Shown here: piece after piece, positions 8,167 through 31,011 of the stretch
How positions within the stretch are numbered: position 1 is the first letter of the stretch
Layout: the number at the start of each line of letters is the position of its first letter
NCBI RefSeq assembly: GCF_000760515.2
Contig: NW_013546256.1
Location: 1 to 31,775 of the forward strand
Source of the DNA: Mitosporidium daphniae
Taxonomy: Eukaryota; Microsporidia
Reading direction: 5' to 3'
Length of the DNA stretch: 31,775 nt
Position numbers and translations under genes: made by a program
Notes under the pieces: model-generated
Database searches by the model: none
Told to the model about the DNA's origin: nothing
Seen by the model: the letters and a program-made list of their open reading frames with translations, nothing else

Positions 8167-9059
8167 CTATTTTACTGAAACGGTACTTTTAAATTTGAAA
8201 TATTGGTACTGAAGTACCTGCCAAATTAAATTCAAAAACGAAAAATCTGGCCACAGGGTGTCGTCAAATAATAAAAGCGTGTTTTGAGAGGTGATCTACA
8301 ATTTCAGTGACCATCAACGACATACTTGCCACATCATAAAATCAGAAAGCCTGTGCTCCCCTGATGTCCGGATCAATAAGTCCAAGGGAGGGCCTTTAGC
8401 CGTATCCAAAAAGCCATCTATTTTCCCATCACATCCTTTTGCTGAGGTCTTTTGACACACAGCACGTTCAATCTCATTTGTACTTGTATATAGAAATGCG
8501 ATGTTCAATATCCGCTTTCCGCCTTTTGTCATCGAAATGGTCTCGTTTATCTGATTTCGCATGTCTTCCTGGGCAAGGGACATGTCTCCAATTACACGGA
8601 TGGAGACAGACTTTTCCTTAACCAGCGAGCTAAACAATAAAAGGATATCCCATTACCTGTGCATGGACAATAGTTTACATTTTTCCATCGCAAGAGACAT
8701 CAAAAACGACACTTCTTGCGTGGATCGCTTAAAGTTCTCAATGCTAAATGCATAAAGGGTCACGCATTCGACATCAAGCAGTAAGCACCATTTGAGGATC
8801 TGGAATAAGTAAATGCGTAAATAAATAGACAAACTTTCTCCAACGCTTTATATCCATTAAGGTGGCCAATGCCTACACCGTCGGCATCGCCAGCCAAAAA
8901 ACCTCTTTTTTGTCTGGACCATCTTCTATTGCCATCCATGATAAACGAGATGTGTTTAGGAACAGGTCCCAGTTTGACAAAATAAATTACAAGCGGAATG
9001 AGAATATCATCGATTATCGAGCTCATGATTCCACCAAACTTTACCAAAAGGCGGTCCAT
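8167..9059 (-). CDS. RER2: dehydrodolichyl diphosphate synthase (cis-prenyltransferase)
   Basis: Makes the long-chain polyprenyl diphosphate precursor of dolichol for protein glycosylation at the ER. Four exons: 9059-8835, 8799-8657, 8629-8326, 8295-8167; introns of 35, 27 and 30 nt; 266 aa. Splicing is supported because joining the frames restores family motifs: FIMDGNRRW (catalytic Asp42), then LYAFSIENFKRS across the first junction, RVIGDMSL, LLIRTSGEHRLSDF, and WPDF after the last junction. A hydrophobic N-terminal helix before the catalytic domain could associate with membrane. Without the third intron the protein would stop right after the RLSDF motif, so that intron is well supported. 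An AT element lies at 9062-9071 directly upstream of the start. Confidence 0.92.
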
Positions 9060-9339
9060 TCAAATTAAAATCCGCAAATTTCTTGCTGTTTAATCCTCTT
9101 TTGCGAAGAAAATGTATCATCAGCAACTTGCCCCATGTAAGCGCTGCATTAAAAAGCATCAAACTGGCGGCTAGCATCAAATGGATCGCTTAACGTTATG
9201 TGCACACCTAAAACACAGACAGGTTGAACACATATGTAAAATGAGCTATTTTATTGATGGTGCATGTCGTCACTAACATGTCGTGCGTTAATGTAAAATA
9301 TTTTTCTCTTTAATTTTCAGACCAAGAAAAAACAAGGCA

Positions 9340-10815
9340 TCATGCTTTGGCCTCATCTTGTGGCTGCTGCTTTATGGCAGACGTAGGGTGCGTTTCAGGG
9401 TATTTGATTAGCCGCATAATGATCTTCTCAAAGACAATCTCCGACATGAGAAGCCCAAATGAAACTATGATGCCGATGATGATGGAGCCGAGTAGAGTTC
9501 TGTAAAAGTTGGTATTTGCCCCAGAGCAGTCGGCCTTGTGCAGGCCTGCAAGGAGAGCAAAGGCTGCTCTGACAATTCGGGAACCAGGAACAAGGGGCAG
9601 CATCGCACAGTACATCGCGGCTTCGGGGATTTGCCTGACAGCTTTGCAGGTGGACCTCATAAAGATACCGAGAGAAAAAGCACTAGCAAAGTGGACAAGT
9701 TCGTCTGGAAATGCAAGAACCTCCTCAAATAAATATATCATCAAGAAGCAGAAGACCGTCGAGACAATTGCAAGAATCCATTGCGAACGCCGAGTTTGAT
9801 AAATAAGGCAACACGCGATAGCAAAAAGGCAAACCAAAATGATGCTAGTACCGAGGTCTACTTTCAGCTCTGGGGTTGTCGCGAACCTAAGGTACTGGTT
9901 GGGGTCGACTCCGGTAACCCAAATGGCTACTGAATAAGAGATGCCCATGATGATTGCAATGAAGCAGCAGCCAAACAACATGATAAACCCGGGGGCTGGG
10001 CCAGCCTTGGACAGAATATCAATCGTGGCAATAACAAGTGAAAATCCGGGAAGAATCCAAATATTGGAAGCAAGGATCACTGGCCAGAAAGAAATTGGCT
10101 GGCTGGTTCCATGTGAAAGCACGGAAAAAAATATGGCCAATAATGCACAGACAAATGAGCAAAGAACTTCGTGGAAAGGGAGAAGCATGGTTGGGAGGCT
10201 ATCTGAGAGCAGCGCAAATACACCGGCAATTGAGCCGATAAGAAGGGTAACGGCGCCATCCAAAAGCGACCCGCCAAAGAAAGCAGGAGCCATAGGGGCT
10301 GCCATAAAGCCGAAGCCAAGTAAAAGACCATATTTTCCATATGGAAGAGGCTCCTTCTCGATCGCTGTAAGACGGACAATTACATCGCCAACTAGGATCG
10401 AGTTGACATTCTTATGCATATCTTCTATAAGATCAGCCAAATTTTGCAGTGTTGAGAGCTGAAATCCCCACCTGCATTGAAGCGCAAAAGCTACATTCAA
10501 CAAAGAAACGTGTGGCAGGGAAAGCTCCTCCTCTCCTATTCCAGAGGTAGGCCATGTAAGAAGAATGCGACCAGGGAGAAAGCTCACCGTTGCCTCAAGG
10601 TCTAAAATTTTACACAGCTTATCAATGTACACCTGAGTCAAATGTGCTGTACCGCCACATTTGTACACCAAGGGAATGATCCTAAGCAGAAGTCCACGTT
10701 TTTTTGGGACCGAAAGATCTCTCAAAACGACACCATTGAGATTGGTTTGGCTTGCGAATTGCTTATCTTCTATTTCTGTGCTAATTGGTAGTGGTTCAGT
10801 AGAGTTGGAAGACAT
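9340..10815 (-). CDS. ThrE/Prm10-like (DUF1212) membrane transporter
   Basis: 491 aa, single exon. The N-terminal soluble domain (about residues 50-165) has the CGGTAHLTQVYIDKLCKIL pattern typical of the ThrE family, in which a conserved Gly and Thr precede an amphipathic helix. It is followed by about ten transmembrane helices to residue 470 and a short hydrophilic tail. Bacterial ThrE exports threonine and serine; the fungal homologue Prm10 is a pheromone-regulated membrane protein of unclear substrate. Assignment to the family is firm, substrate is not. TTTAAAT precedes the start codon at 10818-10824. Confidence 0.85.
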   Translation of the reverse strand: MSSNSTEPLPISTEIEDKQFASQTNLNGVVLRDLSVPKKRGLLLRIIPLVYKCGGTAHLTQVYIDKLCKILDLEATVSFLPGRILLTWPTSGIGEEELSLPHVSLLNVAFALQCRWGFQLSTLQNLADLIEDMHKNVNSILVGDVIVRLTAIEKEPLPYGKYGLLLGFGFMAAPMAPAFFGGSLLDGAVTLLIGSIAGVFALLSDSLPTMLLPFHEVLCSFVCALLAIFFSVLSHGTSQPISFWPVILASNIWILPGFSLVIATIDILSKAGPAPGFIMLFGCCFIAIIMGISYSVAIWVTGVDPNQYLRFATTPELKVDLGTSIILVCLFAIACCLIYQTRRSQWILAIVSTVFCFLMIYLFEEVLAFPDELVHFASAFSLGIFMRSTCKAVRQIPEAAMYCAMLPLVPGSRIVRAAFALLAGLHKADCSGANTNFYRTLLGSIIIGIIVSFGLLMSEIVFEKIIMRLIKYPETHPTSAIKQQPQDEAKA

Positions 10816-10932
10816 CCTTTAAATGGTAGTAAAAAAGAGGTTTATTCAACGACAGCCAAACTATTTATAGCTGATTGATGACAAAAGAAAATTAATTTAA
10901 TATATCATTTATGAGTAACGCTTCGTCTTATC

Positions 10933-29625: not shown

Positions 29626-29715
29626 CAAGACACTGACCAAATGGGAAGAATTTACAACATTTTACAATATCGAAGACCTGGGTCAATTAAATTTTAAATA
29701 ATTTTAGGTGTGTTA

Positions 29716-30131
29716 TTAAATGGAATCGTTGGACAGGTCCAATTTAACCTGCTCTCCAGGCCTAAATGCTGGAAGCCCCAGGTAAGGGCAAGAGGAACAT
29801 CTAAATGCATCTCCAAGATAGCACTAAAAATTAGCTAACCCATATGTACAGATCCACATCCGCCCTTTGGAACCTCAACGCTAGGTGTGCTTCTAATTTC
29901 GGATGAAATCTCCTCTGCTAATCCACAAGTACAATTTTTACAAGCTTTCTTCCGCGCAGACACATTTGAGGGTGAACATTCATCTCCTAAAGCGGTATTC
30001 TTTGTGTTCTGATCGGGTAAAATAAGCTCCGACTCTGTAAACCTCACCGCTTGCGGATTTTCATCTTCAACAGCCTTTTTCCATGAAAAGGGTAGCGGAA
30101 CCTTGGTTCCAATCGGTATATTCAAGTCCAT
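29716..30131 (-). CDS. DRE2: CIAPIN1/Dre2 Fe-S protein, short form without N-terminal domain
   Basis: Electron donor of the cytosolic iron-sulfur assembly pathway. Two exons, 30131-29850 and 29823-29716, 26-nt intron, 129 aa. The C-terminal domain is clear: RKKACKNCTCGLAEE holds the first cluster motif, and GGCGSCYLGDAFRCSSC, formed exactly across the junction, is the CX2CX7CX2C second cluster motif; PYLGLPAFRPGEQVKLDL follows. Homologues have about 250-310 aa with an N-terminal methyltransferase-like domain; that domain is absent here. The RRF stop codon is only 22 bp upstream of the ATG, so the missing part is unlikely to be simply unannotated next door. Confidence 0.93.
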
Positions 30132-30153
30132 AAAAAATTAAATTTTATTAAAA
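30132..30153 (-). promoter_or_regulatory. AT element in the 22-bp gap between RRF and Dre2
   Basis: Almost pure A/T with AAATT elements; it lies directly upstream of the Dre2 ATG and directly downstream of the RRF stop codon on the same strand. Confidence 0.45.
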
Positions 30154-31011
30154 TTAAGCCAATTTAATTTCATTTTTCTTTTGCATGACAAGTTTGTCGA
30201 TTTTTTCGATGAATTTATCGTGTGCTTTTTGAATATCCTTCTCTAGCCGCTTTATTTCCTCCTTTGACACAAAATCGCAGCTAGATAAAGCAGTTCTTCT
30301 GCAAGTGCGTATTTTCATTTTGCATCTTTCTCCAATAGCGCTAGCCTGCTTTGAGAGAATAGCTTTAGAGGTATCATCCAGCTTGGGAATAGGAACCAGA
30401 AGGGTAATCGGATCTTTTACATGTACAACAAAAGGTGGATCAACCGCATTTAAAGCTTTTACGACATCCTTAGAAAACTACGGATAAGCAATAAAGTTTA
30501 CCGATTCATCATATAGTCTAATCTGCAGGGTAAACCCATCTTTCGCTGCAATTTGGGCAATACTTTTCAATGGGAGACTTTATAGGTTCTGATTTATCGA
30601 GACCTCCTCCAACATCGCTATACATTATTTGGTACAAGTACCTGGCGTTGCTCTACCAGTTCTTATTCGGCCCAATTCGGCACTTAGATGAGTGATGCAA
30701 CACTCAAATAACTCATTGAGATGAGAGGAATTGAAGTTATCCACACCCTTTCCCAATGGATCCTTTAAGAAAGCCAATTTCTTCAATGAAAGATTCCTGC
30801 CTGAAAAGCTTGATGATGCATCGCCCTCAAGTTCATAGCCATCGGAGTCCCCATATTCAAGATTCTCACCGTCATCATTGGAGGTACTTTTTATTTTTTC
30901 TTTTATATTTTTAATTTTCGAATAATTTTGGCACGAATCCAACATTAAATGAACCCTTGTGCATCTTCTAGTAAGGTTCCTGCCAAGTGACAAGCAGGAG
31001 AGTGGTTGCAT
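30154..31011 (-). CDS. RRF1: mitochondrial ribosome recycling factor, with an in-frame TAA
   Basis: Splits post-termination mitoribosomes. Three exons: 31011-30642, 30617-30502, 30477-30154; both introns 24 nt; 269 codons plus stop. The N-terminus (LSLGRNLTRRCTRVH) is a plausible presequence; a linker of about 70 residues precedes the RRF domain. Domain markers: ELGRIRTGRATP, AMLEEVSINQNL, then SLPLKSIAQIAAKDGFTL, FSKDVVKALNAVD, LLVPIPKLD and a basic KRLEKDIQKAHDKFIEKID C-terminus. A TAA at 30580-30582 lies between SINQNL and SLPLKS at a position that aligns without gap to homologues, so it replaces a residue rather than ending the gene. It may be a sequencing error, a nonsense allele, readthrough, or be removed by an alternative intron. 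Confidence 0.82.

What the first reader, a model, noticed from the sequence alone, without database searches (positions are those of the whole stretch)
8167..31011. Very small spliceosomal introns with a bimodal length distribution
Reconstructed junctions give 40 introns in 16 genes. Thirty-seven are 23-35 nt and three are 95-115 nt (17462-17576, 18601-18713, 20797-20891), with nothing between. Almost all begin GTA or GTN and end TAG or CAG. Each junction was chosen because it restores diagnostic family sequence. Comparable sizes are known from Paramecium, chlorarachniophyte nucleomorphs and Stentor, but would be notable in a fungus-like lineage. A separate long class may be recognised differently.
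Basis: partly seen in the sequence, partly recalled or inferred. Interest (0 to 1): 0.85.

Follow-up and report, generated by a model that had tools for sequence, protein, structure and literature searches.

The report
Tiny introns in an early microsporidian
This DNA comes from Mitosporidium daphniae, a water-flea parasite near the base of the Microsporidia, whose genes carry many spliceosomal introns of only about 28 letters, which suggests that introns shrank in this lineage before its later relatives lost them.

Summary
I rebuilt 42 introns in 16 window genes: 39 of 23-35 nt plus 95, 113 and 115 nt. Alignments to solved structures or Pfam cross 29 of the 42 junctions; 13 rest on reading frame, motifs and recalled family sequence. 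In 282 kb of the same assembly a gene finder called 367 introns in 195 genes, 342 of them 22-37 nt, mean 28.0, SD 3.2. With a flat length prior it called 255 of 20-37 nt for GT-AG against 17-48 for seven other site pairs. RPB1 is 100% identical to the Mitosporidium daphniae record, so this is an early-diverging microsporidian. U1, U2, U4, U5, U6 and Prp8 are present. A tight second peak with nothing between is not supported: elsewhere alignments cross introns of 40, 58, 65, 98, 100, 123, 156 and 175 nt. Predicted donor-to-branch distance, however, is about 18 nt in short introns and mostly 48 nt or more in long ones (small sample). Tiny introns were known in Microsporidia; here they are dense. 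No RNA evidence was available.

The parts
8800..8834 (-). intron 35 nt, cis-prenyltransferase (DHDDS-like)
   Evidence: junction crossed
8630..8656 (-). intron 27 nt, cis-prenyltransferase
   Evidence: junction crossed
8296..8325 (-). intron 30 nt, cis-prenyltransferase
   Evidence: junction crossed (two residues more than DHDDS)
12622..12645 (-). intron 24 nt, SF3A3
   Evidence: junction crossed
12313..12338 (-). intron 26 nt, SF3A3
   Evidence: junction crossed
11426..11455 (-). intron 30 nt, SF3A3
   Evidence: junction crossed
12911..12941 (+). intron 31 nt, 2-oxoacid dehydrogenase E2
   Evidence: junction crossed
14344..14366 (+). intron 23 nt, mL44-like gene
   Evidence: frame and recalled family
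14630..14663 (+). intron 34 nt, mL44-like gene
   Evidence: frame and recalled family
14822..14850 (+). intron 29 nt, mL44-like gene
   Evidence: frame and recalled family
14905..14935 (+). intron 31 nt, mL44-like gene
   Evidence: crossed by dsrm match
15019..15043 (+). intron 25 nt, mL44-like gene
   Evidence: crossed by dsrm match
15079..15108 (+). intron 30 nt, mL44-like gene
   Evidence: crossed by dsrm match
15531..15561 (+). intron 31 nt, DHHC palmitoyltransferase
   Evidence: frame and motif only
16230..16263 (+). intron 34 nt, DHHC palmitoyltransferase
   Evidence: frame, motif, recalled family
17120..17151 (+). intron 32 nt, Mn superoxide dismutase
   Evidence: junction crossed
17462..17576 (+). 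intron 115 nt, Mn superoxide dismutase
   Evidence: junction crossed
18110..18138 (+). intron 29 nt, TAF6
   Evidence: frame and motif; between two Pfam matches
18601..18713 (+). intron 113 nt, TAF6
   Evidence: crossed by TAF6_C
18810..18837 (+). intron 28 nt, TAF6
   Evidence: crossed by TAF6_C
20048..20072 (-). intron 25 nt, PP2A B56-like gene
   Evidence: crossed by B56 match
20797..20891 (+). intron 95 nt, ribosomal protein eL27
   Evidence: junction crossed
22288..22315 (-). intron 28 nt, TRM5
   Evidence: junction crossed
22080..22108 (-). intron 29 nt, TRM5
   Evidence: junction crossed
21940..21964 (-). intron 25 nt, TRM5
   Evidence: junction crossed
21789..21814 (-). intron 26 nt, TRM5
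   Evidence: junction crossed
21467..21497 (-). intron 31 nt, TRM5
   Evidence: frame and recalled family; not called
23366..23391 (+). intron 26 nt, subtilase
   Evidence: frame and recalled family
23544..23574 (+). intron 31 nt, subtilase
   Evidence: crossed by Peptidase_S8
23735..23765 (+). intron 31 nt, subtilase
   Evidence: crossed by Peptidase_S8
27542..27569 (-). intron 28 nt, kinetochore-like gene
   Evidence: frame and motif only
27211..27237 (-). intron 27 nt, kinetochore-like gene
   Evidence: frame and motif only
27037..27068 (-). intron 32 nt, kinetochore-like gene
   Evidence: frame and motif only
27940..27965 (+). intron 26 nt, cytochrome b5 reductase-like
   Evidence: crossed by FAD_binding_6
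28256..28282 (+). intron 27 nt, cytochrome b5 reductase-like
   Evidence: crossed by NAD_binding_1
29521..29546 (-). intron 26 nt, NMNAT
   Evidence: junction crossed
29416..29442 (-). intron 27 nt, NMNAT
   Evidence: junction crossed
29037..29068 (-). intron 32 nt, NMNAT
   Evidence: junction crossed
28907..28934 (-). intron 28 nt, NMNAT
   Evidence: junction crossed
29824..29849 (-). intron 26 nt, CIAPIN1 (anamorsin)
   Evidence: crossed by CIAPIN1
30618..30641 (-). intron 24 nt, ribosome recycling factor-like
   Evidence: recalled family, read; not called alone
30478..30501 (-). intron 24 nt, ribosome recycling factor-like
   Evidence: frame and recalled family

Best explanation
The segments are U2-type spliceosomal introns of Mitosporidium daphniae that have shrunk close to the smallest workable size. 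Each keeps little more than three signals: a 5' site, mostly GTA; a branch motif of the form YTNAY; and NAG about 8 nt after the branch adenosine. About 18 nt lie between the 5' site and the branch. Shown: sizes, motifs, restored protein homology, presence of the five major snRNAs and Prp8, and the species. Inferred: that the segments are removed from RNA by this spliceosome; that a short intron is recognised as one unit, with U1 leaving or handing over as U2 binds because both can hardly sit on 18 nt; that the rarer long introns are unshrunk remnants or hosts of other elements (one holds a C/D snoRNA-like stretch); and that shrinkage came before the near-complete intron loss of later microsporidia.
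For: 42 curated introns, 39 of 23-35 nt; 29 of 42 junctions crossed by alignments. 367 introns in 195 predicted genes and 224,281 coding bases, 342 under 38 nt, mean 28.0 SD 3.2; 255 flat-prior calls of 20-37 nt against 37, 48, 32, 20, 17, 27, 24 for seven other pairs. In 342 short introns the predicted branch position is A in 272; a median of 18 nt precedes it and 8 nt follow it. U6, U2, U1, U5, U4; Prp8 in one 2419-aa frame; U1-70K; SF3A3 in the window. RPB1 100% identical to the M. daphniae record, first 1660 residues identical across both of its introns; C59 is 115,468 bases, the longest M. daphniae scaffold in eLife e29594 Table 1. Introns called on 26 of 26 stretches.
Against: No transcript was seen: the spliced SOD protein had no hit above 68% identity among the 120 listed. 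13 of 42 window junctions have no tool alignment. Of 47 introns called in the window by the learned-prior gene finder 39 are in the curated list, 4 conflict with homology and 4 are untested; the curated list is not wholly independent, since I had seen an earlier run. At 40 nt and above the flat-prior run gave 65 GT-AG calls, fewer than the 121-202 of the other pairs, so long calls without homology mean little. RED_N and SF1-HH gave no match, which does not show absence; U2AF-large matches stayed below the cut-off.
Confidence: 0.92

Rival explanations
1. Two sharply separate intron classes, 23-35 nt and 95-115 nt, recognised by different means.
For: The window alone shows 39 and 3 with nothing between. 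Predicted donor-to-branch distance has 28 as its 99th percentile in short introns; above 29 the gene finder's 34-70 nt calls give 33, 47, 48, 49, 55, 57, 58 (47 is a wrong SUB2 call).
Against: Other introns of 40, 58, 65, 98, 100, 123, 156 and 175 nt are crossed by alignments, so there is no tight second peak. A like branch motif is found near the 3' end of long introns, though the scan looked only in the last 27 nt.
Confidence: 0.15
2. The segments are assembly errors, small insertions or signs of pseudogenes, not introns.
For: Single cases look like that: an in-frame TAA in the RRF-like gene and a beta-tubulin segment ending TG.
Against: A strong GT-AG excess at one length, a shared branch motif, homology restored at 29 of 42 junctions, and a deposited M. 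daphniae RPB1 spliced at the same two places.
Confidence: 0.03
3. The segments are removed as DNA (like ciliate internal eliminated sequences) or skipped in translation.
For: No RNA data were available to exclude it.
Against: GT-AG borders, YTNAY branch motif and a major spliceosome fit splicing; no such process is known to me in fungi or Microsporidia (recalled).
Confidence: 0.01
4. The long introns are long because they host other functional RNAs such as snoRNAs.
For: The 167-nt RPS3 intron has a C/D snoRNA-like stretch (snoR1, 36.1 bits, E 4.3e-6).
Against: That score is under the family's gathering score of 49. No Rfam match up to E 3 over the three long window introns. Folding of five long introns gave z-scores of 1.8, 1.0, -2.8, -2.7 and -1.2.
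Confidence: 0.15

Closest known systems
Encephalitozoon cuniculi introns (Microsporidia)
   Same: GT-AG, 22-76 nt, same phylum (PMC3629993, section 10 read)
   Different: 37 introns in all there; here 1.64 per kb of coding sequence in the sample, some 6,000 genome-wide by extrapolation (367/195 per predicted gene times 3,331 published protein models)
Mikrocytid introns
   Same: many tiny introns in a parasite (PMC10245619, passages)
   Different: 16-17 nt, 224 in M. mackini, reduced spliceosome; here 22-37 nt
Paramecium ultra-short introns
   Same: around 25 nt (PMC5014332, start of abstract in a search listing)
   Different: ciliate, unrelated lineage
Stentor 15-16 nt introns
   Same: tiny introns with all snRNAs present (PMC9505925, passages)
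   Different: shorter; the Isy1 N-terminus is not conserved in Stentor, while here profile positions 9-104 of Isy1 match
Rozella allomycis introns
   Same: intron-bearing relative, 2.53 introns per kb (PMC8476143, passages)
   Different: its intron lengths were not seen in any call

Membership tests
U2-type spliceosomal introns | GT-AG borders | tested here: met
   42 of 42 curated, by construction of the search; runs with seven other pairs give far fewer short calls
U2-type spliceosomal introns | branch-point motif upstream of the 3' site | tested here: met
   learned motif YTNAY, A at the branch position in 272 of 342
U2-type spliceosomal introns | removal restores conserved protein | tested here: met
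   29 of 42 window junctions crossed
U2-type spliceosomal introns | major spliceosome encoded | tested here: met
   U1, U2, U4, U5, U6, Prp8, U1-70K, SF3A3
U2-type spliceosomal introns | excised from RNA | not testable with these tools
   no RNA reads held
Mitosporidium daphniae | sequence identity to the published genome | tested here: met
   RPB1 100%; longest scaffold 115,468
Two-peak intron lengths | second peak at 95-115 nt outside the window | tested here: not met
   25 of 367 calls are 38 nt or longer, spread over 40-235 nt, and homology-backed ones run from 40 to 175 nt
snoRNA host introns (long class) | snoRNA match in the intron | tested here: inconclusive
   RPS3 intron below gathering score; none in the 3 long window introns

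The most novel reading that the evidence does not exclude
Introns of the microsporidian stem lineage were miniaturised to about 28 nt while still numbering in the thousands, and only later lost; M. daphniae keeps that intermediate state with all five major spliceosomal RNAs. Its introns fall into two spatial modes, donor-to-branch of at most about 29 nt or at least about 46 nt, with a nearly forbidden zone between, so that one organism shows both the ordinary spacing rule and a way round it.
Probability: 0.3. Interest if true: 0.75.

Novelty: new member of a known kind. Interest (0 to 1): 0.5.

Why it matters
Microsporidia are the textbook case of intron loss; a fungal intron survey that does not name Mitosporidium in its main text infers 0.22 introns per kb for the microsporidian ancestor (PMC8476143, passages). 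An early branch with about 1.6 per kb, nearly all near 28 nt, would put the great loss after its split and shrinkage before loss. A spacing of about 18 nt between donor and branch lies far under the 46-50 nt limit reported for human spliceosomes, so the species is a natural test of how a spliceosome copes with that limit. In practice, gene models made with a usual minimum intron size would be wrong here: no near-identical full-length SOD protein turned up, although RPB1 of the same species did.

Tried and rejected
Open-frame bridging with loose flanks was swamped by false joins; stricter flanks showed the short excess. Single-strand Viterbi over-fused genes; a two-strand version drifted to a poly-T branch motif or over-called introns; the version with a retrained coding model was kept. 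Gene-finder calls rejected by alignment or by recalled family reading: 23439-23468, 13910-13936, 29299-29339, 29203-29224, 8167-8217, 11227-11251, 11144-11166, 14986-15012, 29918-29941; 20863-20891 (by the eL27 alignment), 21306-21384, 28123-28145, 30546-30641 (by recalled family reading). Left untested: 7836-7859, 16311-16335, 16342-16370, 19464-19495. The 78-nt beta-tubulin call is a 27-nt segment plus coding sequence, by recalled family reading. An excess of in-frame stops in introns of length divisible by three (81 of 100, against 43 of 117 and 49 of 105) was not used, since false calls would give the same. RED_N and SF1-HH gave no match, which does not show absence; U2AF-large matches stayed below the cut-off. 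G-alpha hits named no close relative. The 18S search did not complete.
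Full report
What was checked. The window is contig C95 of an assembly of 4,662,434 bases in 147 contigs. I rebuilt the genes from homology. All begin GT (34 GTA, 5 GTT, 2 GTG, 1 GTC) and end AG (28 TAG, 10 CAG, 4 AAG).

How firm each junction is. Alignments to solved structures cross the junctions of SF3A3 (3 of 3), SOD (2 of 2), eL27 (1 of 1), E2 (1 of 1), the cis-prenyltransferase (3 of 3), TRM5 (4 of 5) and NMNAT (4 of 4). Pfam matches cross those of TAF6 (2 of 3), S8 (2 of 3), b5R (2 of 2), CIAPIN1 (1 of 1), the B56-like gene (1 of 1) and the mL44-like gene (3 of 6). 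That is 29 of 42. The other 13 rest on reading frame, motifs and, for most, family sequence that I recalled; the names mL44, RRF and kinetochore-like are recalled too. Scores rise on splicing: TAF6_C 104.2 to 220.1 bits, Peptidase_S8 77.3 to 126.4, CTP_transf_like (NMNAT) 22.9 to 64.5.

Chance. A two-strand gene finder trained on the assembly itself was run on 26 stretches (281,775 bases: the window and 25 pieces of 10 kb, from 13 contigs in all). With a flat length prior it called 255 introns of 20-37 nt for GT-AG and 37, 48, 32, 20, 17, 27 and 24 for GA-AG, GT-TG, CT-AG, GT-AC, CT-AC, GC-AG and AT-AC. In the window alone it was 28 against 2-7. At 40 nt and more GT-AG had 65 calls, fewer than the 121-202 of the other pairs, so long calls without homology mean little.

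Shape beyond the window. With a learned length prior: 367 introns, 195 genes (123 with introns), 224,281 coding bases; 342 introns under 38 nt, mean 28.0, SD 3.2, range 22-37; 25 longer. All 26 stretches have introns. In the window 39 of its 47 calls are in the curated list, 4 conflict with homology (one by tool alignment, three by recalled family reading) and 4 are untested; 39 of the 42 curated introns are recovered. The curated list was made after seeing an earlier run, so the two are not fully independent.

Long introns. The second peak does not hold up. Besides 95, 113 and 115, alignments cross introns of 123 and 100 nt in RPB1, 98 in SUB2, 65 in CBF5, and 40 in PSMB4, 58 in adenylate kinase, 175 in MCM3 and 156 in a P4-ATPase. 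The 167-nt RPS3 intron lies near codon 5, outside any match; it carries a C/D snoRNA-like stretch (snoR1, 36.1 bits, E 4.3e-6, below the gathering score of 49). The three long window introns have no Rfam match up to E 3, and five long introns tested for folding gave mixed z-scores. SUB2 was first called as 56 nt; homology shows 98.

Signals. The learned branch motif reads YTNAY. In 342 short introns the predicted branch position is A in 272; a median of 18 nt (13-25 at the 5th and 95th percentile) precedes it and 8 nt (6-13) follow it. For twelve long introns the best branch leaves 6-15 nt after it, but the scan looked only in the last 27 nt, so this likeness is partly by construction; their donor-to-branch distance is 49-166 nt, except PSMB4 at 33 with a weak branch score. 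In short introns the 99th percentile is 28. Among all gene-finder calls of 34-70 nt the values above 29 are 33, 47, 48, 49, 55, 57 and 58, and the 47 belongs to the wrong SUB2 call. Human studies report a minimum of 46 nt (PMC11291888; abstract and passages) and about 50 nt (PMC6692369; passages). So the two-class idea may be right for this distance, though the sample is small and branch points are predicted.

Machinery. U6, U2, U1, U5 and U4 each have one match over the family cut-off; U1 keeps ACTTACCTG, U2 GTGTAGTATC and U6 ACAGAGA (read; the meaning of these motifs is recalled). Prp8 sits in one open frame of 2419 codons; U1-70K and Isy1 match. RED_N and SF1-HH gave none, which is no proof of absence, and U2AF-large matches stayed under the cut-off.

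Species. The spliced RPB1 matches the Mitosporidium daphniae RPB1 at 100% over the 1400 residues searched; the first 1660 residues are identical, through both long introns, and the lengths differ by seven residues (1802 and 1809), which looks like one C-terminal repeat. Paramicrosporidium and Rozella come at 50% and 49%. C59 is 115,468 bases, the longest M. daphniae scaffold in Table 1 of eLife e29594, which also gives 5.64 Mb, 612 scaffolds and 43% GC (passages). The assembly held here would then be a part of it. NCBI taxonomy places the species in Microsporidia.

What is known. Tiny introns occur in E. cuniculi (22-76 nt, 37 introns), mikrocytids (16-17 nt), chlorarachniophyte nucleomorphs (18-21 nt) and heterotrich ciliates (15-16 nt) (passages), and Paramecium (around 25 nt; search listing). 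A fungal survey gives a mean of 0.01 introns per kb for 15 microsporidia, 0.22 for their ancestor and 2.53 for Rozella (passages). Of the nine papers that hold both Mitosporidium and intron I looked for passages in eight (the last held only in part); PMC5973626 was not opened. None of the passages gives intron lengths for the species; one says that its caleosin gene has no intron. Other listings pointed to nothing on its introns. Haag et al. 2014, which described the genome (recalled), is not held, so whether it gives intron lengths is unknown to me.

Annotation. The spliced SOD protein had no hit above 68% identity among the 120 listed (only proteins of 0.55-1.75 times its length are candidates), while RPB1 did. 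This suggests, but does not show, that the deposited gene models miss some of these introns.

Verdict. Real by every sequence test made, spliceosomal in its signals, and very short; RNA proof is lacking. The lineage is a known parasite of water fleas and the kind of intron is known, but the density at this branch of the tree and the gap in donor-to-branch distance deserve RNA data.

Noticed in passing
window 30154-31011 (-): The ribosome recycling factor-like gene has an in-frame TAA near 30580 in a stretch that otherwise looks colinear with the recalled family; polymorphism, assembly error or decay.
   Followed up: partly
L034 6358-6384: The beta-tubulin gene seems to contain a 27-nt segment that begins GT but ends TG, not AG; assembly error or rare non-canonical acceptor.
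   Followed up: partly
L010 8511-8677 (-): The 167-nt intron of RPS3 carries a C/D snoRNA-like stretch (snoR1 match, below gathering score).
   Followed up: partly
window 28094-28110: A 17-nt GT..AG segment in the b5R-like gene sits where the frame changes; shorter than any other intron here; unresolved.
   Followed up: partly
282-kb sample (window, L009-L028, L030-L034): Short introns of length divisible by three contain in-frame stops more often (81 of 100) than others (92 of 222); false calls or selection linked to decay of unspliced mRNA.
   Followed up: partly
C70:98824-104455 (L023, L038): RPB1 has two introns, both long (123 and 100 nt), and no short one was called.
   Followed up: yes
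window 31-6609 and 9340-10815: No intron was called in six genes at the left end (methyltransferase, two unknown pairs, G-alpha, ThrE-like transporter).
   Followed up: no
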